From positions 1 to 64,000 of the IMG/VR virus record IMGVR_UViG_3300030103_005573: a stretch of 64,000 bases of DNA. One strand, 5' to 3'. The notes below the pieces were generated by a model. The model searched no databases. It had not been told where the DNA came from and saw only the letters and a program-made list of their open reading frames with translations. Numbering within the stretch: position 1 is the first letter of the stretch; each line of letters starts with the position of its first letter. The stretch is from a virus. The translations under genes were made by a program, and so were the position numbers. Shown piece by piece: positions 53,695 to 64,000 of the stretch.

Positions 53695-54600
53695 TTAATT
53701 GATTGACCCGGTTTGTTCTATGATTACTTCACCATCTACAATATCGAAGTAATATATTGCATACTCGCCATTTTCATCTGTACCGTTAAGATATAAATAA
53801 TTGTTCGAACCAGACACATAAATATCTGCATGTGTTAATAAGGTATCGCCGTCAAATTTAAACCATGGGTCATCCACCTCTTCCCCAAAGTCAGAATGAG
53901 GCACTTCCTTAATAACAGTTTTCCCACCAGTGATAGAAAATTCATATTTTGCCGGTAGTCCTTGTTCATTAGTGCCATGTAGATATAGGTTATTACCTGA
54001 TCCTGAAATATAAACAGCAGCATCCGTCATTAGGGTGTCGCCGTTAAAATATAGTTCAGCATCATTTGGAATATTTACGTTTAGATTACCTCCTGGTCCT
54101 ATACTGGCACTCAAGAGAGCAAAACTAGAACTTAAGCTAGCCAAGCTAGAACTTAAAGAAGATATCTCAAGGTTAGAGGCGTATATGTCCGAACTTAACG
54201 CTGAAACGCTGGAAGATATGCTAGAACTAAGAATATTAACATCCGTAATTACAGTAGTCAATTCGTCATTGATAGTAATAATATCTTGATCATTGGAGGC
54301 CACATTTTCTGCAACATTAGATACTCCAATATCTAAAGAAATAACAGCGTCTGCATTTGATATCACCTCAGAATTTAGATTATGAATCTTTATAGTATTA
54401 ATATCCACGGAGGAACTTACATCAGTAATTCTAGAATGAAGTACTGAAGTTTCATCTTCTATTACATCTAATCTATATTCCCATACAGAAGTAACTTCTG
54501 GGAGAGAACCTGTTATATCGTTGTCATCTATAAATTTAACAACAGCAGATTTCATCGCATGATGAGCAGAAATATGACCTAAATTACGTCTTTTAGCCAT
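53695..54600 (-). CDS. Fibre-like coiled-coil protein with duplicated C-terminal domain
   Basis: A 301-residue protein with features of a trimeric tail or head fibre. Residues ~60-170 are Ser/Ile/Leu-rich with heptad-like spacing (SSSISSSVSALSSDI; SSLSSSLASLSSSFAL), a classical weak coiled coil. The C-terminal part has two homologous copies of a ~55-residue β-domain, residues 183-246 and 247-301, with matching FNGDTLMTDAAVYISGS and FDGDTLLTHADIYVSGS and then NNLYLHGTNEQG and NYLYLNGTDENG. The N terminus has MAKRRNLGHISAHHAMKS. It is next to small acidic and fibre-associated genes. A fibre or fibritin-like role is inferred from structure. Confidence 0.65.
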   Translation of the reverse strand: MAKRRNLGHISAHHAMKSAVVKFIDDNDITGSLPEVTSVWEYRLDVIEDETSVLHSRITDVSSSVDINTIKIHNLNSEVISNADAVISLDIGVSNVAENVASNDQDIITINDELTTVITDVNILSSSISSSVSALSSDIYASNLEISSLSSSLASLSSSFALLSASIGPGGNLNVNIPNDAELYFNGDTLMTDAAVYISGSGNNLYLHGTNEQGLPAKYEFSITGGKTVIKEVPHSDFGEEVDDPWFKFDGDTLLTHADIYVSGSNNYLYLNGTDENGEYAIYYFDIVDGEVIIEQTGSIN

Positions 54601-55303: not shown

Positions 55304-56236
55304 TTATCTAGGAGAAAAAACATCTCCCATATTTTTAACGCTCTGAATATGGAAATATTCACTCATTTTTTTATGTAGTTTTTGACTCATTTCTAACATT
55401 TGTACATCTGTTTTGTCCACATTCTTATTCATTCTAGCCCACACTTTCATTTCTGCTTGGGCGATGGAATTTTTAAGGAAAACTTTAATAGCCATCAATG
55501 GAGATGCTACACCAATATTCTCCATAGATCTATATCCAGCAAAGATGTTTCCGATCAATTCATTATTGATATTCATGATAGGAGAACCGCTGCTTCCGGG
55601 CTTAGTTGGCATACTATACATGGCATACCCTTCTGGCGAATACCCTGTAAAGTATCCATCAAAAGTTAATACCATCCTGGGAAATACAATTCCATGAGGT
55701 GCGGCCATATTGTAAGCTAACTCTCCACGCTTGGGGGATGATTTAGCAACTTTAAGAACAGGAGGCTTTACTAGTACTGACCCTACCTCTAACAAACAGA
55801 GATCAAATCTTTTATCTATAGCTACCACAGAAGCTTGATGTCTAAAGCCATTATAATCAATTACAGTAAATTTTTGACCAAGGTGAGTTACTACCACACC
55901 ATCAATTTTTCTCTCGGGAACAAATGTACTTCTACAAGAATGTCCAGCGGTAAGAGCGTAACTTACACCAGTGTCAACCTCACTATGTTTGATAAATGAC
56001 CCAGAAGAAACGGCTCTTGAGGTAGCATTTTGACATTTAATCTTATTATTTTTATCTAATTCACAACCTTTCCAATGTGTATCACTGCGTAATTGTATAA
56101 ATGATTGTACCGGAAAATTATGTCTTATTGGCTTTACATGATTAGGTGTAGCGCAGGCAGAAGAGCAACTTGTGACCATAATATACAACAGGGTGATTGA
56201 ACACACTCGCAGGGCATCGGTAAATATACGCATCAT
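55304..56236 (-). CDS. Trypsin-like serine protease, lipoprotein
   Basis: A 310-residue exported protease. The N terminus is a signal peptide ending in VTSC (lipobox with Cys24), so the mature protein is probably lipid-anchored on the periplasmic side of the envelope. The trypsin-like catalytic triad is present: YALTAGHSC with His99, DKRFDLCLLEV with Asp145 and TKPGSSGSPIMN with Ser216. A pair of extra Cys in the mature N-terminal part (Cys58 and Cys68) may form a disulphide. Length fits S1-family members. Phages rarely carry such proteases. It is transcribed divergently from three exported proteins on the other strand, which suggests a shared purpose at the host surface. Confidence 0.82.
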   Translation of the reverse strand: MMRIFTDALRVCSITLLYIMVTSCSSACATPNHVKPIRHNFPVQSFIQLRSDTHWKGCELDKNNKIKCQNATSRAVSSGSFIKHSEVDTGVSYALTAGHSCRSTFVPERKIDGVVVTHLGQKFTVIDYNGFRHQASVVAIDKRFDLCLLEVGSVLVKPPVLKVAKSSPKRGELAYNMAAPHGIVFPRMVLTFDGYFTGYSPEGYAMYSMPTKPGSSGSPIMNINNELIGNIFAGYRSMENIGVASPLMAIKVFLKNSIAQAEMKVWARMNKNVDKTDVQMLEMSQKLHKKMSEYFHIQSVKNMGDVFSPR

Positions 56237-56639: not shown

Positions 56640-57125
56640 ATGATAAGAGTATTAACACGTAAAAGGGTACTCTTATTTATTCTAGGAATTGTCTCCCTTT
56701 TAGCTGCCTCTCTGATATATTATAACAGTATTAAGCCCGAACTTGTTCTATCGGGGGATGTCACATATTATCTCCCAGGACAAAGAAGCAATTGCCAGTG
56801 GGTCATGCAGGCAGATCACAACTTATATAACACACCTGGTGAGACTACCGAGATTCGCATAGGAATTCCCTCTGCTCAAAAAATGGGGTTTATCAGTGGA
56901 AGAGTAGAGGTCGGACCTCACAATACCTTAATCTTAGCTTTTATACCACCTGGAAAATCTAAAGATAAGATTCCTGTAGTATTGACTGCTGATTACTCAG
57001 AAAAAACATTGCCTATTGATTTTGTTCGTTTCAGATGGGCACAAAGTAGTGCCATAACTATACTTTTATTTTCTAGTAAAAATAAATGTTTATCGTCAAT
57101 TCCAGCTAGCGGTTTAACAAAATGA
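56640..57125 (+). CDS. Membrane-anchored exported protein, unknown
   Basis: A 161-residue protein with an N-terminal membrane segment (residues 9-27, VLLFILGIVSLLAASLIYY) after a Lys/Arg-rich start, so the rest lies outside the cytoplasm. The mature region contains a β-rich domain (ELVLSGDVTYYLPGQR; TTEIRIGIPSAQ; RVEVGPHNTLILAFIPPG) with two Cys. A GGGAG ribosome-binding site lies eight bases before the ATG. It overlaps the vWA gene by four bases, so they are translated together. No known family. Confidence 0.68.
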   Translation: MIRVLTRKRVLLFILGIVSLLAASLIYYNSIKPELVLSGDVTYYLPGQRSNCQWVMQADHNLYNTPGETTEIRIGIPSAQKMGFISGRVEVGPHNTLILAFIPPGKSKDKIPVVLTADYSEKTLPIDFVRFRWAQSSAITILLFSSKNKCLSSIPASGLTK

Positions 57126-58369
57126 GATTAATTAAAATCCTACCTGCACTACTATTGTTTTTTGCATGTGAGGAGGATCGCCTAGTAAAATTAGAATGTG
57201 TACCTGGTGAAAAACTTGTGTGCGATGAACATGGGCAGGATTTTCCTGCGGCGGACCCTGTTGATATTGCAAAACGAGCAGGTCAATGTTCTTATGGTAT
57301 AAAAACATGCACGGTAAGAGGATGGTCAGAATGCATAGGAGCACAAGGACCTACTGATGAAATATGTGATGGAATAGATAACGACTGTGATGCCATAATT
57401 GATGAAACTTATCCAGAAGAACACCAACTTTGTGGATTTGAAGAGAATATAGATTATGGAGTTGGTATATGTAAACCAGGAGTTATGAGTTGTTATAATG
57501 GAGTTTTATATTGTGGTGGACATGTCGGACCTACTGATGAAATTTGTGATGGTGTTGATAATAATTGTGATGGCACTATAGATGAAGGCATTGCTAACTC
57601 CACAGCAATCGTATGTTATGAAGGTCCAGATGGAACTCTGGGTGTTGGAGAATGCAGGGCAGGAATTAGATATTGTACAGATGGATCTTTTGGTGGACCA
57701 TGTGACAGTCAAATTTTGCCAGTATTAGAACGATGTGATAATTTAGATAATGATTGTGATGGAGAAGTTGATGAGGGATTTGACACCCGTGGTGTAGATT
57801 TAGTTTTTGTTATTGATATCTCCGGTTCGTTTAGGGATGAGATAGACTCAATGGTACAAGGTATTACTCCCCTTTTAGACGACCCGATAACGAGCACATT
57901 TCGCTTTGGACTCGTTGTCGTAGGTGCTAGGGCAGGTGACGACCTAAGACCCGCATATCACCTCGCAAGAATGGTGTCTGATTTTGTTCCCGCTGATGAG
58001 TTTTTGGCTGTAATAGAAGCTGGAAGAATGGTTCCAAGTGCTGGACAAGAGCCAACAGTAGATACAATGTATTGGTCAATGAATGAATATCCATTTTCAT
58101 GGAGGACAGGTGCACAAAAAGTTATTATAACAATGACGGACGAAGAAGCTCAAACAACATTCTCACACCCAAGGACTTGTTTTGAGGTAGCAGAGCACGC
58201 AGATAATCTTGGATTTGAATTATTTGTTTTCGCTCTCCAACAACACCACAATACATTTATAAATTGTGTTAGGGGCAGGAGAGATAGGTTATATACTCCT
58301 ACAGCAAATTCAGAAACTGTATTTCTACAGATCAGAGCTATTTTTGAGGATCTTTGTATGGGAGGGTAA
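57122..58369 (+). CDS. Lipoprotein with three DNDCDG-type repeats and a vWA domain
   Basis: A 415-residue exported protein. The short signal peptide ends in LLLFFAC (Cys16, probable lipid attachment, although Phe at -3 is not ideal). Three copies of the EICDGIDNDCDxxIDE-type motif follow at residues 80-95, 140-155 and 203-218, the putative metal-binding motif common in Myxococcota and related bacteria, each within a Cys-rich module. Residues ~225-410 form a von Willebrand A domain: VDLVFVIDISGSF carries the MIDAS residues Asp232, Ser234 and Ser236, and KVIITMTDEEA the later acidic MIDAS residue. Such proteins bind other surface proteins. The gene abuts the convergent 58370 gene without a spacer. 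A bacterial origin is likely. Confidence 0.85.
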   Translation: MRLIKILPALLLFFACEEDRLVKLECVPGEKLVCDEHGQDFPAADPVDIAKRAGQCSYGIKTCTVRGWSECIGAQGPTDEICDGIDNDCDAIIDETYPEEHQLCGFEENIDYGVGICKPGVMSCYNGVLYCGGHVGPTDEICDGVDNNCDGTIDEGIANSTAIVCYEGPDGTLGVGECRAGIRYCTDGSFGGPCDSQILPVLERCDNLDNDCDGEVDEGFDTRGVDLVFVIDISGSFRDEIDSMVQGITPLLDDPITSTFRFGLVVVGARAGDDLRPAYHLARMVSDFVPADEFLAVIEAGRMVPSAGQEPTVDTMYWSMNEYPFSWRTGAQKVIITMTDEEAQTTFSHPRTCFEVAEHADNLGFELFVFALQQHHNTFINCVRGRRDRLYTPTANSETVFLQIRAIFEDLCMGG

Positions 58370-58783: not shown

Positions 58784-59332
58784 TTAGTAATTATCTTCCA
58801 CATGTTTCTTAATTTGTGCTCTTATAGCTTCTTTTTCTTCCTCTGTTTCCGCATTTGCCCAGCCCCATGCCAACGTAGCTCTCATATTGTCTGATTTATG
58901 CGATCCATCTTTAATATAGTTTTCTAACTCTCCTGAGATCTCATCTGCATCTATATCATCTGTTTTGATTTTTAGAGTAGATGCGATAACAAACAGTGTA
59001 GCCATATCACATTCTTCATAAGCTTCAGAAGCCTGAGAGAAGTACTCTGTTAAAACTTCTGAGTCTACTTTATCTGGGTGTGTAGCTTTTGAGATTCTTC
59101 TGTATAACTTTTTCATATCTCTGGTAGGCGTTGGTTTTTTCTTTTCTGTTTCTTCCAACGATGACGGAGCAGTATTCTTTTTTGCAGACTCTATCATTCT
59201 TTTATATTCTTCTGGAAAATCTTTATAGAACTGTTCTTTAAACTTCATGAAGAGATCTGTGGTTTCCTCCAAATCCTCAGAGACATATTGTGCCTTAAAT
59301 ACTAACTTTTTAATGTTTGGCTTTTTTGGCAT
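58784..59332 (-). CDS. J-domain protein
   Basis: A 182-residue protein with a C-terminal half resembling a DnaJ J-domain: RDMKKLYRRISKATHPDKVD carries the HPD motif at residues 85-87, then SQASEAYEECD. The J-domain activates host DnaK to fold or remodel client proteins. The N-terminal 60 residues are charged and helical. The Gly/Phe and zinc-finger parts of full DnaJ are missing, so it is a short, dedicated cochaperone. AGGA lies about ten bases before the ATG. It is downstream-of-transcription from the three big fibre genes, separated by a strong terminator, so it may need its own promoter or read-through. Fibre folding could be its task; that is inference. Confidence 0.72.
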   Translation of the reverse strand: MPKKPNIKKLVFKAQYVSEDLEETTDLFMKFKEQFYKDFPEEYKRMIESAKKNTAPSSLEETEKKKPTPTRDMKKLYRRISKATHPDKVDSEVLTEYFSQASEAYEECDMATLFVIASTLKIKTDDIDADEISGELENYIKDGSHKSDNMRATLAWGWANAETEEEKEAIRAQIKKHVEDNY

Positions 59333-59423: not shown

Positions 59424-60947
59424 TTAGCCAGGCTGAACTTCTAGTTGCATGACGTTCTCAGCACCAGATGTATTGTATTCAAAGACCAAGTGGACTTTAT
59501 CAACACCATCTTCAAGTTTGAGAGTACCGCCATCAGAGCCGTCACCGTCAAACTTAAACTTAGCAGCAAACGCATCAATGTTACCTTGTAGTGCATTATC
59601 AGCAGCAAGACGGTCACCTTCTTCAATCCCAATGCTAGTAGCAATACCACTATCAGCGACTTGACGAATGTTAGTCTGATTTGCTTCAGCAGTACCACGA
59701 GCAGCAGTTTCTGCATCAATCTCAGCCTGAATACCATTGTCACCAGAGATGCGTAGTGCTTCTTCACTGTCAACAGCAAGAGAGCGAACACCTTCTTCTG
59801 CGGTGTTTGCTGCAATTGCAGCAGCCTTAGCAGAGGACATGCCAGCTTCTTCAGTAGAAACGTCGGCAGAGCGGTTGGCTGATTCTGTTGCTATAGCAGC
59901 CATCAAAACACCATTAGCATTTAGACGAGCAACTTTTTCTGAAGACATCGCTGCTTCCATGGTAGAAATTTCAGATGAAAGAGCACCAGAAAGAACTACA
60001 TCGCCCGAAAGCATAGAAGAGTTCTCAGCAGCAACAGCAGCGGCACGATCACCAGCTTCAGAAGCTACGTTACCAGCGATGACTGCATCAGCAGCTTCAT
60101 AAGCTGCCTTCTCAACAGAAAGAGCATCTTTACGATCAAGAGTTTCTTGACCAACGAGAACACCGATAGAAGAATCAGCATCACCACGAGCAGTAGCTTC
60201 AGCAGCTACGCCTGCAATTCTTGCAGCTTCTTGTGTATCAATATCACCCTGGATTGCAGCATCACCAGCAGCACGAGCAGTAGCTTCGGCAGTGACAGCA
60301 GCAGCACGAGCTACTTCAGCGTCATCAATGTCACCAGAGATGCCGGCATCAGCAGTAAGACGTGCAGCTTTTTCAGTTGACGAAGCAGCGGCACGAGCAG
60401 TTTCTTGTGCGTCAATTTGACCACTTAGAGTAGCATCATCAGCAGCACGCTTGGATGCTTGAGCAGTTACCTCAGAAGCACGATTAGTAGCTTCATCAGC
60501 AATACGTGTCTCCATGGAAAGGTCAGCAGCAGAGCGCAAAGCAGCTTCAGCAGCTAGATCAGCGATACGTTCTGCTACCGCACTAGACAAGTCGCCAGAC
60601 AAGGACGAATCCATTGCTTCACGAGCAGCTTTTTCTACGGACAATGCAGAAGACTGATCACCAGCTTCAGAGTCAATGTTACCCTGAATAACTGTATCAG
60701 CATCACCACGGGATGTAACTTCACTAGCGAGAGCAGAGTTTTCATCACCCTCTTCTGTGGCTAGATTAGCAGAAAGAACGTTACGTGCAGCCAATTCAGC
60801 AGTAAACGCATCATTCAAGGAGTGATCTCCACCTGCGGGGTTAGCAACCTGTAAGACTTCTGCTAGTTCACCAGCAGATTCAATCATCTTTTTCTGAAGG
60901 ACTAATCCGCTACCGGATGAATCCTCAATATATACATTTTTTGGCAT
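59424..60947 (-). CDS. Ala-rich coiled-coil fibre protein (copy A)
   Basis: A 507-residue fibre protein. Residues 1-44 form an N-terminal domain with SGSGLVLQKKMIESAGELAE, shared with copy B. Residues 45-62 are an 18-residue unit, 63-439 exactly thirteen 29-residue repeats and 440-457 a final 18-residue unit; 458-507 form a β-rich C-terminal domain (KFKFDGDGSDGGTLKLEDG). In the repeats Ala dominates, with Arg at position 18, Asp at 22 and Ile/Leu/Val at 11, 25 and 29, a regular coiled-coil-like spacing. Base composition is GC-richer than neighbouring genes owing to Ala codons. GGAG lies before the ATG. A terminator follows the stop. A long tail or head fibre is the obvious role. Confidence 0.8.
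   Translation of the reverse strand: MPKNVYIEDSSGSGLVLQKKMIESAGELAEVLQVANPAGGDHSLNDAFTAELAARNVLSANLATEEGDENSALASEVTSRGDADTVIQGNIDSEAGDQSSALSVEKAAREAMDSSLSGDLSSAVAERIADLAAEAALRSAADLSMETRIADEATNRASEVTAQASKRAADDATLSGQIDAQETARAAASSTEKAARLTADAGISGDIDDAEVARAAAVTAEATARAAGDAAIQGDIDTQEAARIAGVAAEATARGDADSSIGVLVGQETLDRKDALSVEKAAYEAADAVIAGNVASEAGDRAAAVAAENSSMLSGDVVLSGALSSEISTMEAAMSSEKVARLNANGVLMAAIATESANRSADVSTEEAGMSSAKAAAIAANTAEEGVRSLAVDSEEALRISGDNGIQAEIDAETAARGTAEANQTNIRQVADSGIATSIGIEEGDRLAADNALQGNIDAFAAKFKFDGDGSDGGTLKLEDGVDKVHLVFEYNTSGAENVMQLEVQPG
59631..60761 (-). repeat. Thirteen 29-residue (87-bp) coding repeats, copy A
   Basis: Covers residues 63-439 of the 59424-60947 product. All thirteen units are exactly 29 residues with no insertion. 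The sequences are diverged, so the repeat is easier to see in protein than in DNA. The flanking 18-residue units equal a repeat minus 11 residues. Confidence 0.9.
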
Positions 60948-60992
60948 TTTATTTTTATCTCCTTATAAAATGTTTTTGTTAATTGCTATCCC

Positions 60993-62522
60993 TTATGCAC
61001 CCTTGTGGAGTTCTAAGAGAACAACACCGCTAACAGTCTTGTAATTCATACGAACAACATCACTACCATCGGTGAGAGTTAGGTTAGAACCAGCACCAAC
61101 TGCTGGAGCACCACTGTAGCCAAACTTGTTATCAAGTGAAGTAATTGAGTCACCCATTGCAGTATCACCTGCAACACGAGCAGCTATAGCATCATCAAGA
61201 TCACTTTGTAGTGAAAGATCAGCAGATCCACGAGCAGCAGACTCAGTAGTAATGTATGCAGCCATTGCTGTGTTTTCAGCAGCAATGTTATCACTTAGAG
61301 TAACATCACCAGCAGCACGAGCAGTTTCTTCAGCAGCAACATCCGCTACACGAGCAGCGACCATTGCAGCAACATCAGCTTCTACATCAGCGACGTCGCC
61401 TGCACGGACAGTTGCAAGACTTGCAACAGCAGCAAGAGCAGCAGCCTCTTCGGTGTCAATGTCACCAGAGATACCAGCATCATCAGCAGCAGCACCAGCT
61501 TCTTCGGTAGATACCAAAGCTTCACGATCAACTACAGCACCAGAGATACTTGCAGATAGAGCCGCATCAGCAGCTTCACGAGCAGCCTTTTCTGTACTTA
61601 CAGCAGCGGAACGTGCAGCTTCTTCATCAGAGATGAGAGTAGCGACAGAAACGTCAGCAGCAGCACGATCAGATGCGTGACCAGTTACAGCAGACGCACG
61701 ATCAGACTCTTCACTATCAATACCAGCAGAAAGGTTGGCATCACCTAGTTCACGAGCAGCCTTTTCAGAAGAGATCGCACCAGAGCGAGCAGCAGCTTCG
61801 GCAGCAATATTAGCAGCCAAAGAGGCGTCGCCAGCAACACGAGCGTCTTTTTCTACAGAAAGAGCAGCAAGACGTGCAGTTTCTTCAGCATCAATTTCAC
61901 CCTGAAGGGCAAGATCAGCAGCCGCACGCTCAGAAGCTTCTAGAGCATGTTCAGCTACACGAGCTACTTTCTCAGAAGAGATCTGAGAAGCCATATCGTT
62001 GTCTTCGTTTCCACGAGAAAGAGCTTCAGCAGAAACAGCAGCACTACGTGCAGCGATTTCATCATCCTTAAGAGTAGCAACAGAGTTATCTGCGTTTGAC
62101 ATTGCATTAGCTTCAGCAGTTACAGCGTTAAAACGAGCATCGCTTTCATCACCAAGTAAAACAGTTTGAGCATCGTCAGCACTGTCCATAGCAGCTTTCT
62201 CAGAAGAGATTGCAGCACTTGCAGCAGCTTTCATTGTGCTCAAGTTAGCAGTAAGAGTTGCATCATCAGCAGCACGAGTTACTCTTTCTGCCGCAGCAGC
62301 AGCAGAACGCTCACCAGCTTGAGTGGAAATTGCAGAGTCAATCGCATCACGAAGATCTTTTTCAAGTGACAATTGTGCGTTGACGTCTTTATCATCAACG
62401 GCAGGTTCCGCAGCACCTGGCTCTAAAACCTTTAATAGAGAAGCTAGTTCGGATGAGTCCTGAACCATCTTCTTTTGTAGTACTAATCCGCTATCATCAG
62501 CGCCATTAATATATGTAGGCAT
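60993..62522 (-). CDS. Ala-rich coiled-coil fibre protein (copy B)
   Basis: A 509-residue paralogue of copies A and C. The N-terminal domain holds DSGLVLQKKMVQDSSELASL. Residues 48-65 are an 18-residue unit, 66-442 thirteen 29-residue repeats, 443-460 a final 18-residue unit and 461-509 the C-terminal domain (NKFGYSGAPAVGAG; VVLLELHKGA). The repeat count and total rod length (413 residues) are identical to copy A although sequence identity is low. The gap to copy A is 45 bases with GGAG before the ATG of A. The N-terminal motif is likely the attachment site to the particle and the C-terminal domain the tip; both are inferences. Confidence 0.8.
   Translation of the reverse strand: MPTYINGADDSGLVLQKKMVQDSSELASLLKVLEPGAAEPAVDDKDVNAQLSLEKDLRDAIDSAISTQAGERSAAAAAERVTRAADDATLTANLSTMKAAASAAISSEKAAMDSADDAQTVLLGDESDARFNAVTAEANAMSNADNSVATLKDDEIAARSAAVSAEALSRGNEDNDMASQISSEKVARVAEHALEASERAAADLALQGEIDAEETARLAALSVEKDARVAGDASLAANIAAEAAARSGAISSEKAARELGDANLSAGIDSEESDRASAVTGHASDRAAADVSVATLISDEEAARSAAVSTEKAAREAADAALSASISGAVVDREALVSTEEAGAAADDAGISGDIDTEEAAALAAVASLATVRAGDVADVEADVAAMVAARVADVAAEETARAAGDVTLSDNIAAENTAMAAYITTESAARGSADLSLQSDLDDAIAARVAGDTAMGDSITSLDNKFGYSGAPAVGAGSNLTLTDGSDVVRMNYKTVSGVVLLELHKGA
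61197..62327 (-). repeat. Thirteen 29-residue (87-bp) coding repeats, copy B
   Basis: Covers residues 66-442 of the 60993-62522 product. The units keep the register of copy A: charged or small residues at 1-7, Ala-rich 8-10, Glu common at 14, Arg or Met at 18, Asp at 22 and an aliphatic residue at 29. Confidence 0.9.
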
Positions 62523-62584
62523 ATTATTTCCTCCTTAGAAAATAAATTATGTTATCATAAGAACCAATAAAAAGCTATCAGTTA

Positions 62585-64000
62585 TTAGCTGATGAACATT
62601 TTTACAACGTTTGTACCAGCAACTTTAACGAACTTAGCAGTTACGGCAACACCGGAACCAGCATCAGTCATTACAAAGTCACCACCACCTGCACCATCAC
62701 CAGAGAAGCCGAGTCTATCAGTAAGGACTTTTAGACTTGTGCTTACAGCAGCATCGCCAGTTTGACGATCAGCAATTTCACTAGTGATATTTGCGATCAA
62801 TGCATCATCACCAGCTTCCTTGGAAACTTTTTCTGAAGATATTTCGCTAGAACGCAATGCAGCTTGAGTAGACATAGCAGCAGAGTGTGTAGCATCATCA
62901 GCAGCACGCTTTGTAGCCAAAGAGGATACAGCAGCAGCACGATTACTTTCTTCATCGGAAAGCAAGTTAGCGATAGAAAGGAAATCAGCTTCACGAGCAG
63001 ATTCTTCGCTATCTACAGCAGTGATACGAGCGTTGATAGCAGCGTCTAATTCGTTGGACAAAGAAACGTCCATCGCACTACGAGCAGCTACAGCTACAGA
63101 AACATCAGCAGCACGAGCAACAGCTTCATCATCAATTTCACCCTGAAGAGCAGCATCAGCAGCAGCACGAAGTCCAGCTTCAGCAGCAACAGCAGTTTCA
63201 CGAGCTAAGACAGCACTTGAAAGACCGCTGGAGTTTGTTGCATCATCAGCTTCACGAGTAGCTTTTTCTGAAGATACAGCAGCAGAACGATCAGCGATAG
63301 CAACAGCTAGTTCACCTTCTAGGGCAACATCAACGGATTGCATTGCAGACTGCTCAGCAGCAATAGCAGAAACATATGCAGCTTCTTCGGAGTCAAGAGC
63401 AACAGACTGTGTTGCATCGCCAGCGAGACGATCAGTTTGTTTGTCAGCTACTTCTGCGGCCATAGCAGCTTCTTCAGCAGCTAGGTTTGTAGAAAGAGCA
63501 GCGTCACCAGCAACACGATCAGCGTTAATAGAAGCCAAAGAAGTATCTTCTTCGGACTCTTCTGTTGCCAAAAGTGCAGCTACAGAATTATCACCTGCTA
63601 ACATAGCAGCGGATTCAGCAGCAACAGCGGCTACACGAGCATCTTCCATATCACCGATATCGGTTGTAAGAGCTACATCACCTTCACCACGAGCAGTTGC
63701 TAAAGAAGCAACAGCAGCGTTCATAGTAACTAACTCAGCAGCGATAGCAGCACTTTGTGCAGAATCTTTGTTGCTACGAGAAAGTGTTGCTGCGGCTAGA
63801 TCATCGTCTAGTTCGCCAGCATCAGTAACAAGTTGACTGCTAACAGCAGCATCGCCAGCTTGACGCTCAGCAATTGTGAAATCCATATCAGAGATACGAG
63901 CAGAAACTTCTGCCGAAAGGGCAGTAGATAGAGAACCACGTTGAGTAGACGCTTCAGCGAATGCCTCATTGAGGTTTTTGTCCAGACCAGATTCTGGCTC
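62585..64000 (-). CDS. Ala-rich coiled-coil fibre protein (copy C, start outside window)
   Basis: The frame is open to the window edge; 471 residues are visible. The ATG at 63886 lies inside repeat 1 and is not the true start. After ten residues (EPESGLDKNL) come an 18-residue unit, thirteen 29-residue repeats and a last 18-residue unit, then a 48-residue C-terminal domain (DRLGFSGDGAGGGDFVMTDA). The plan is the same as in copies A and B. The missing N-terminal ~30-35 residues should carry the SGLVLQKKM-type motif. A weak hairpin follows the stop. The three genes form a tandem array and are likely the product of two duplications. Confidence 0.8.
   Translation of the reverse strand, partial: EPESGLDKNLNEAFAEASTQRGSLSTALSAEVSARISDMDFTIAERQAGDAAVSSQLVTDAGELDDDLAAATLSRSNKDSAQSAAIAAELVTMNAAVASLATARGEGDVALTTDIGDMEDARVAAVAAESAAMLAGDNSVAALLATEESEEDTSLASINADRVAGDAALSTNLAAEEAAMAAEVADKQTDRLAGDATQSVALDSEEAAYVSAIAAEQSAMQSVDVALEGELAVAIADRSAAVSSEKATREADDATNSSGLSSAVLARETAVAAEAGLRAAADAALQGEIDDEAVARAADVSVAVAARSAMDVSLSNELDAAINARITAVDSEESAREADFLSIANLLSDEESNRAAAVSSLATKRAADDATHSAAMSTQAALRSSEISSEKVSKEAGDDALIANITSEIADRQTGDAAVSTSLKVLTDRLGFSGDGAGGGDFVMTDAGSGVAVTAKFVKVAGTNVVKMFIS
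62786..63916 (-). repeat. Thirteen 29-residue (87-bp) coding repeats, copy C
   Basis: Covers the repeat region of the 62585-64000 product, with the same length (377 residues) and register as in copies A and B. Confidence 0.88.

What the first reader, a model, noticed from the sequence alone, without database searches (positions are those of the whole stretch)
59424..64000. Three tandem fibre paralogues with identical 18 + 13x29 + 18 residue rods
Hand alignment of the three products shows that each rod consists of an 18-residue unit, exactly thirteen 29-residue units and a terminal 18-residue unit: 413 residues in all three, with no indel, although sequences have diverged strongly. 29 residues is not a heptad multiple; it equals 18 + 11, i.e. 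7+11+11, about 3.63 residues per turn over eight turns, which predicts a nearly straight or slightly right-handed coiled coil. A continuous helix of this size would be about 62 nm. Strict conservation of length with free sequence drift suggests that length is selected, as if the three chains lie side by side (a heterotrimer) or must reach the same distance.
Basis: partly seen in the sequence, partly recalled or inferred. Interest (0 to 1): 0.78.

Follow-up and report, generated by a model that had tools for sequence, protein, structure and literature searches.

The report
Phage fibre braided from three genes
Three neighbouring phage genes make helical chains of exactly equal rod length whose charged residues match each other level by level and in one direction round the ring, so the fibre is almost certainly one 62-nm three-stranded cable with one chain from each gene, an assembly code that can be read straight from sequence.

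Summary
A, B and C each contain thirteen 29-residue units between conserved ends. So do their orthologues in two other phages (nine of nine proteins, 422-residue rods, no indel), although paralogue rods are only 23-32% identical in register.

The new result is coupling between the genes. At the same axial level, A, B and C differ more than at any unit shift. At repeat positions 8 and 19 exactly two of the three chains carry Glu in 77 of 84 layers (41 expected). The odd chain differs between phages with compensating changes in another gene. Nearly every Glu has an Arg four residues on in one particular neighbour: 164 of 169, against about 124 for the other neighbour or the same chain (A to C, B to A, C to B). 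This is the signature of a parallel, in-register A:B:C heterotrimeric coiled coil.

Related phages with a single fibre gene at this locus have rods of other lengths or types. C's ORF is larger than reported (831 aa); its N-terminal lectin-like module ends at a conserved internal ribosome site, so the 504-residue form is probably the main product. Stoichiometry and virion location are untested experimentally.

The parts
59424..60947 (-). Fibre chain A, 507 aa
   Evidence: ORF; orthologues L003:7992-9503 and L004:7986-9500
59559..60824 (-). Rod of A: partial unit, 13 x 29, terminal 18-residue unit (protein residues 42-463)
   Evidence: predicted helix 43-258 and 266-463
60825..60947 (-). Head of A with shared motif GLVLQKKM
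59424..59558 (-). C-terminal beta mini-domain of A (44 aa)
   Evidence: strands 464-506 in the AlphaFold2 model; conserved among orthologues
60993..62522 (-). Fibre chain B, 509 aa
   Evidence: ORF; orthologues L003:6448-7947 and L004:6436-7941
61125..62390 (-). Rod of B: partial unit, 13 x 29, terminal 18 (residues 45-466)
62391..62522 (-). Head of B with GLVLQKKM
60993..61124 (-). C-terminal mini-domain of B; LTDGSDVV core also in fibres of more distant relatives
62585..64000 (-). Fibre chain C, part inside the window; the ORF runs on to genome 65080 (831 aa); short form starts at genome 64099 (504 aa)
   Evidence: orthologues L003:4861-6369 and L004:4849-6357 are the short form
62714..63979 (-). 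Rod of C: partial unit, 13 x 29, terminal 18
62585..62713 (-). C-terminal mini-domain of C
58784..59332 (-). DnaJ-like gene next to the fibres, used as synteny anchor; not part of the rod
   Evidence: Pfam DnaJ E 6e-6; conserved next to the fibres in relatives

Best explanation
A, B and C are the three different chains of one fibre of a contractile-tailed phage: a parallel, in-register 1:1:1 heterotrimeric coiled coil about 62 nm long, with a small beta domain at the C-terminus and a short shared head at the N-terminus. Each 29-residue unit makes eight turns (3.625 residues per turn, nearly straight). It has core positions 1, 5, 8, 12, 16, 19, 23 and 27, of which 8/12 and 19/23 are Glu/Arg layers. 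In each such layer two chains carry Glu and the third Ala, Gln, Leu or similar. Each Glu pairs with the Arg four residues on in one fixed neighbour (A with C, B with A, C with B). The 28 layers favour ABC over homotrimers or AAB trimers and fix the register. A unit gained or lost in one gene would leave the three chains unequal, which locks the repeat number. Shown from sequence: equal lengths, the 2:1 rule, directionality and compensated changes. Inferred: trimer, salt bridges, virion location, and that the short form of C (internal start) is the one that joins A and B.
For: Nine of nine rods in three phages have 13 units and no indel. Paralogues are less alike in register (0.273) than at any of 168 other circular unit shifts; permutation mean 0.3015, P 1.5e-4. 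Exactly two Glu in 77/84 layers, null 41.1 +/- 6.1, maximum 64 in 20,000 permutations; 25/28 in this phage alone. Glu with Arg(+4) in the previous chain 164/169, in the same chain 123, in the next chain 125; where Arg is lacking, the matching Glu of the next chain is lacking in 43/48, against 2/48 and 4/48 for the other assignments. Single-defect layers are 39/39 in one direction. These pairs top an open scan of 7,124 tests, and the maximum |z| of 7.1 exceeds all 300 unit-permuted scans. Odd-chain swaps between phages are compensated: P 0.002, 1e-4 and 0.004. Native ABC fits 23-24 of 26 layers, any two-gene trimer at most 14, homotrimers 0; zero shift is the best of 163. A, B and C are adjacent, in the same order in three phages, and are the three most codon-optimised ORFs of the record, to nearly equal degree.
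Against: No complex was modelled or observed. Only three phages carry the three-gene form, and two of them are close (rods about 72% identical), so their counts are not independent. Positions 8 and 19 were picked after seeing the data; the permuted scan controls for this in the three-phage set, but in this phage alone that scan is not extreme (3.98; 6 of 300 permuted sets reach it). Some layers break the rule: u9/19 has three Glu in all phages, u5/19 has one in two phages. Why exactly two Glu are preferred over three is not explained by geometry done here.
Confidence: 0.92

Rival explanations
1. Three separate homotrimeric fibres of equal length, kept equal because all must reach the same distance from the virion.
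For: Single-gene relatives (G003 and others) presumably form homotrimers from a related gene; phage fibres are usually homotrimers; equal rod lengths fit.
Against: It does not predict any relation between residues of A, B and C at the same level, yet the 2:1 rule, its direction and compensated swaps are strong. Homotrimers would have three Glu or none in every layer.
Confidence: 0.04
2. Homotrimeric (or mixed) rods packed side by side in a larger in-register bundle, so that the coupling is between neighbouring fibres and not within one coiled coil.
For: It would also give level-matched coupling between genes.
Against: The coupled positions (8, 12, 19, 23) are on the core face of the 29/8 helix, not on an outer face; the cyclic three-way rule needs a closed ring of one A, one B and one C.
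Confidence: 0.03
3. Recent triplication with too little time for length change; no selection on length.
For: Tandem paralogues with the same head and tail design.
Against: In-register identity of paralogues is 23-32%, below the off-register level, so no positional ancestry remains; the copies predate the split of the three phages, and length differences did arise outside the rod.
Confidence: 0.01

Closest known systems
Mycobacteriophage Mysterious gp35/gp36/gp37 baseplate heterotrimer (PMC13252515, preprint)
   Same: Three consecutively numbered phage gene products form one 1:1:1 accessory complex described as fibre-like.
   Different: Beta-sandwich domains, not a long coiled coil; no repeat rod.
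Virophage DSLV2 tripartite tail heterotrimer (PMC12724248)
   Same: Three consecutive tail genes; heterotrimer predicted with higher confidence than homotrimers; complex reported as 1:1:1.
   Different: gp37-like tip of about 16 nm in a virophage; no 29-residue rod or layer code.
Designed ABC heterotrimeric coiled coils (Nautiyal; Schnarr and Kennan 'tic-tac-toe'; cited in PMC9758053)
   Same: Hetero-specificity from unlike side chains in the same core layer.
   Different: Short synthetic heptad peptides; here a natural rod with 28 Glu/Arg layers in a 29-residue repeat (details of the designs partly from memory).
T4 fibritin (whisker)
   Same: N-terminal head, long trimeric coiled coil, small beta trimerisation domain at the C-terminus (from own knowledge).
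   Different: One gene, homotrimer, heptad segments with loops; no sequence relation found here.
Laminin and fibrinogen coiled coils
   Same: Natural heterotrimeric coiled coils from three paralogous chains (own knowledge; laminin also).
   Different: Animal proteins, heptad repeats, disulfide-linked, no uniform unit code.

Membership tests
ABC-type heterotrimeric coiled coil | Three different helical chains of matching length | tested here: met
   Equal 422-residue rods, predicted helical for A
ABC-type heterotrimeric coiled coil | Chains matched to each other in register | tested here: met
   2:1 Glu rule and directional Glu-Arg pairing, best at zero shift
ABC-type heterotrimeric coiled coil | 1:1:1 complex observed or modelled | not testable with these tools
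   No complex prediction or biochemistry available
T4 fibritin / foldon whisker | Sequence relation to fibritin or foldon | tested here: not met
   No PHROG, Pfam or PDB sequence match
T4 fibritin / foldon whisker | Helical rod ending in a small beta domain | tested here: met
   AlphaFold2 model of A, four strands after residue 463, at low to moderate confidence
T4 fibritin / foldon whisker | Located at the neck | not testable with these tools
   Virion location unknown
Phage tail fibre (general) | Phage virion protein of elongated trimeric form | tested here: inconclusive
   Phage record with baseplate wedge homologues; fibre form inferred; attachment site unknown
YadA-type 15-residue right-handed stalk | 15-residue repeat, 3.75 residues per turn | tested here: not met
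   Period is 29 (3.625 residues per turn)

The most novel reading that the evidence does not exclude
A natural obligate ABC coiled coil in which partner choice, register and ring order are all written as a legible series of 28 two-to-one Glu layers with one-way salt bridges, the natural counterpart of designed layer-matched heterotrimers. It evolved from a locus that in sister phages holds one fibre gene, and it uses an internal start to make C match A and B.
Probability: 0.8. Interest if true: 0.9.

Novelty: new variant of a known kind. Interest (0 to 1): 0.86.

Why it matters
Heterotrimeric phage fibres are rare, and none found in the literature searched here is a long coiled coil. This one offers an assembly code that can be read, tested and moved to design: which chain is odd in which layer predicts partner, register and ring order. 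It explains why repeat number can be frozen while sequence drifts, and gives a way to detect heteromeric fibres in metagenomes from sequence alone by looking for tandem paralogues that are less alike in register than out of register.

Tried and rejected
tblastn of A in 50,697 phage records, a viral-contig scan with B alone and a genome-contig scan with the nine-sequence alignment found no relatives; alignments of heads and of neighbouring genes did. Pfam, PHROGs and PDB gave nothing for the rods; the weak SF-assemblin and Anamorsin hits are below cut-off and reflect composition.

MAFFT alignment of the paralogues inserts gaps in the rod because the units carry no positional homology; the anchored unit frame was used instead.

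The idea that the upstream phage tRNAs serve the Ala/Ser/Arg-rich rods was dropped: the fibres use CGT for Arg, which tRNA-Arg(TCT) does not read.

Handedness of the ring from an ideal straight-helix model is only a weak preference (Cbeta distances about 8.9 against 10.0 A) that would put A, B, C counter-clockwise seen from the N-terminus; not claimed. The AlphaFold2 model of the lectin-like module is too poor to use (pLDDT 40).

Full report
1. The observation. The window is bases 1-64000 of a 78,150-base virus record. A (59424-60947) and B (60993-62522) lie complete on the minus strand; C is cut by the window end and is an 831-residue ORF reaching genome position 65080. From residue 328 of C on, the protein is the third paralogue (504 aa), with the same head motif GLVLQKKM. 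Counting back in blocks of 29 from the C-terminal anchor gives 13 ungapped units in each chain, a terminal unit lacking 11 residues (7+11) and an initial partial unit of the same build in all three.

2. Homologues. Two other viral contigs carry the same three genes in the same order between a tRNA cluster and a DnaJ-like gene: L003 (502, 499, 503 aa) and L004 (502, 501, 504 aa). All nine rods, ends included, are 422 residues; head linkers (24-33) and tails (41-45) do vary. Orthologous rods between this phage and the others are 34-45% identical; paralogous rods 23-32%. So length is strictly kept where sequence is not. At the same locus other relatives carry a single fibre gene: G003 (L005), very close to this phage in its flanks, has an 846-residue protein whose rod has other repeats, is 483 residues between the anchors (about 450 here in A and C, 455 in B), and holds recent internal duplications; L020 has a much shorter rod; L040-L042 have quite different fibre modules. 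Single-gene fibres are thus free to change length.

3. Coupling between the genes. Paralogues of the same phage are less alike in register than at any other unit shift: 0.273 against 0.3015 +/- 0.0079 on permuting units (P 1.5e-4), the lowest of 169 circular shifts. The cause is visible by eye. At position 8 of the unit two of the three chains carry Glu and the third does not, and the same holds at position 19. With the end units there are 28 such layers per phage; 77 of 84 have exactly two Glu, against 41.1 +/- 6.1 when layers are permuted within chains with the same permutation in all phages (maximum 64 in 20,000). The deviation is a maximum-difference rule, the opposite of what shared ancestry gives.

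4. Direction. Arg occupies positions 12 and 23, four residues after each Glu. Where one chain lacks Glu and one lacks Arg in a layer, the chain lacking Arg is always the one before the chain lacking Glu in the cycle A-B-C: 23 of 23 for 8/12 and 16 of 16 for 19/23, whereas other pairs of positions show no such order. Put the other way, a Glu has its Arg in the previous chain in 164 of 169 cases, in the same chain in 123 and in the next chain in 125. An open scan over residue classes, positions and offsets (7,124 tests) has these pairs on top, and its acid/base part exceeds all 300 unit-permuted scans (7.12 against a maximum of 6.29); for this phage alone the scan maximum is not exceptional (6 of 300), while the specific 2:1 count is (25 of 28, none of 20,000).

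5. Coevolution. The odd chain differs between phages in layers u2/8, u3/19, u4/19, u12/8, u13/8 and u14/8, and in these the loss of Glu in one gene goes with a gain in another (in u2/8 this holds between the two relatives). Such compensated layers exceed chance in each comparison: P 0.002 (G000-G001), 1e-4 (G000-G002), 0.004 (G001-G002). Trios from one phage satisfy 23-24 of 26 layers, mixed trios 19-23, AAB-type trimers at most 14, homotrimers none; zero shift is best among 163 shifts. The three phages are related, so pooled counts overstate independent evidence, but the swaps are separate events.

6. Geometry. With 29 residues in eight turns, positions 1, 5, 8, 12, 16, 19, 23 and 27 lie within about 43 degrees of one face; 1, 5 and 16 are hydrophobic, 8/19 Glu, 12/23 Arg, and 27 Asp in 112 of 117 units. 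The AlphaFold2 monomer of A is helical from 43 to 463 but for a low-confidence break at 257-265, followed by four strands. The most economical reading is a parallel, unstaggered three-stranded coiled coil with one chain of each kind, nearly straight, about 62 nm long. Why two Glu per layer, and not three, is unexplained; crowding or charge in the core, and the benefit of unlike layers for partner choice, are inferences.

7. Expression. A, B and C are the three most codon-optimised ORFs of the record, to nearly equal degree (0.78, 0.78, 0.75; median 0.40), which fits abundant, balanced production; the record is a fragment, so major capsid genes may be missing from the comparison. In C and in five single-gene relatives, an N-terminal module (Laminin_G_3 in three of the five modules scanned; C's own module has no Pfam hit but is 49% identical to that of L041) joins the fibre through Gly-Gly-x-x-Met written GGAGGA-N6-ATG in all six, the only such site in each ORF although GGA is a minority Gly codon; codon bias rises at the joint in all six (Fisher p 2e-15 to 0.03). 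This points to an internal start whose product, the 504-residue C, matches A and B. In L003 and L004 the module is absent and C starts at that Met.

8. Known systems. Heterotrimers from three adjacent genes are reported for mycobacteriophage Mysterious gp35/36/37 (beta-rich) and virophage DSLV2 tails; designed ABC coiled coils use unlike residues in one layer. Text searches for heterotrimeric tail fibres found no long coiled-coil example, within a library that lacks most subscription papers. I therefore call it a new variant of a known kind: a natural, long, code-bearing ABC coiled-coil fibre.

9. Open. Attachment site, receptor, host and actual stoichiometry are untested. The N-terminal heads are alike in all chains and probably attach; the C-terminal domains are distinct for A, B and C, look conserved between phages, and may start or fix the assembly (inference).

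Noticed in passing
genome 64099-64116 (just outside the window); L005:7989-8003; L020, L040, L041, L042 at the module joint: Conserved GGAGGA-N6-ATG inside a fused ORF at the joint of the lectin-like module and the fibre module, with a step in codon bias: a likely internal translation start giving two isoforms, and a joint at which fibre modules seem to be exchanged.
   Followed up: partly
genome 70960-75419 (L002:12761-17220): The phage encodes a PrkA kinase, a SpoVR protein and a DUF444 (YeaH-like) protein side by side, with strong Pfam matches; a bacterial stress trio in a phage.
   Followed up: partly
57122-58369 (+ strand): Secreted or lipoprotein-like ORF with MopE metal-binding motifs and a VWA domain, on the opposite strand to its surroundings and conserved at this place in relatives.
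   Followed up: no
55304-56236: Trypsin-like serine protease (Trypsin_2, E 2e-12) near the fibre genes, conserved in the relatives seen.
   Followed up: no
53695-54600: Coiled-coil protein ending in two similar beta modules (FDGDTL..ADIYISGSGNYLYLNGT); module number varies among relatives (L004 seems to have one).
   Followed up: no
unit 9, position 19 of A, B and C: The only layer with three Glu in all three phages, with Met in place of Arg23 in A: a conserved exception to the two-Glu rule, perhaps a special site in mid-rod.
   Followed up: no
L022, L023, L024: Three related contigs begin inside fibre genes, as if assembly broke at the repeats; metagenomic contigs may under-report such fibre loci.
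   Followed up: no
A residues 257-265: AlphaFold2 breaks the helix of A in the unit IGVLVGQETLDRKDAL, which is glycine-bearing and off consensus; could be a real hinge.
   Followed up: no
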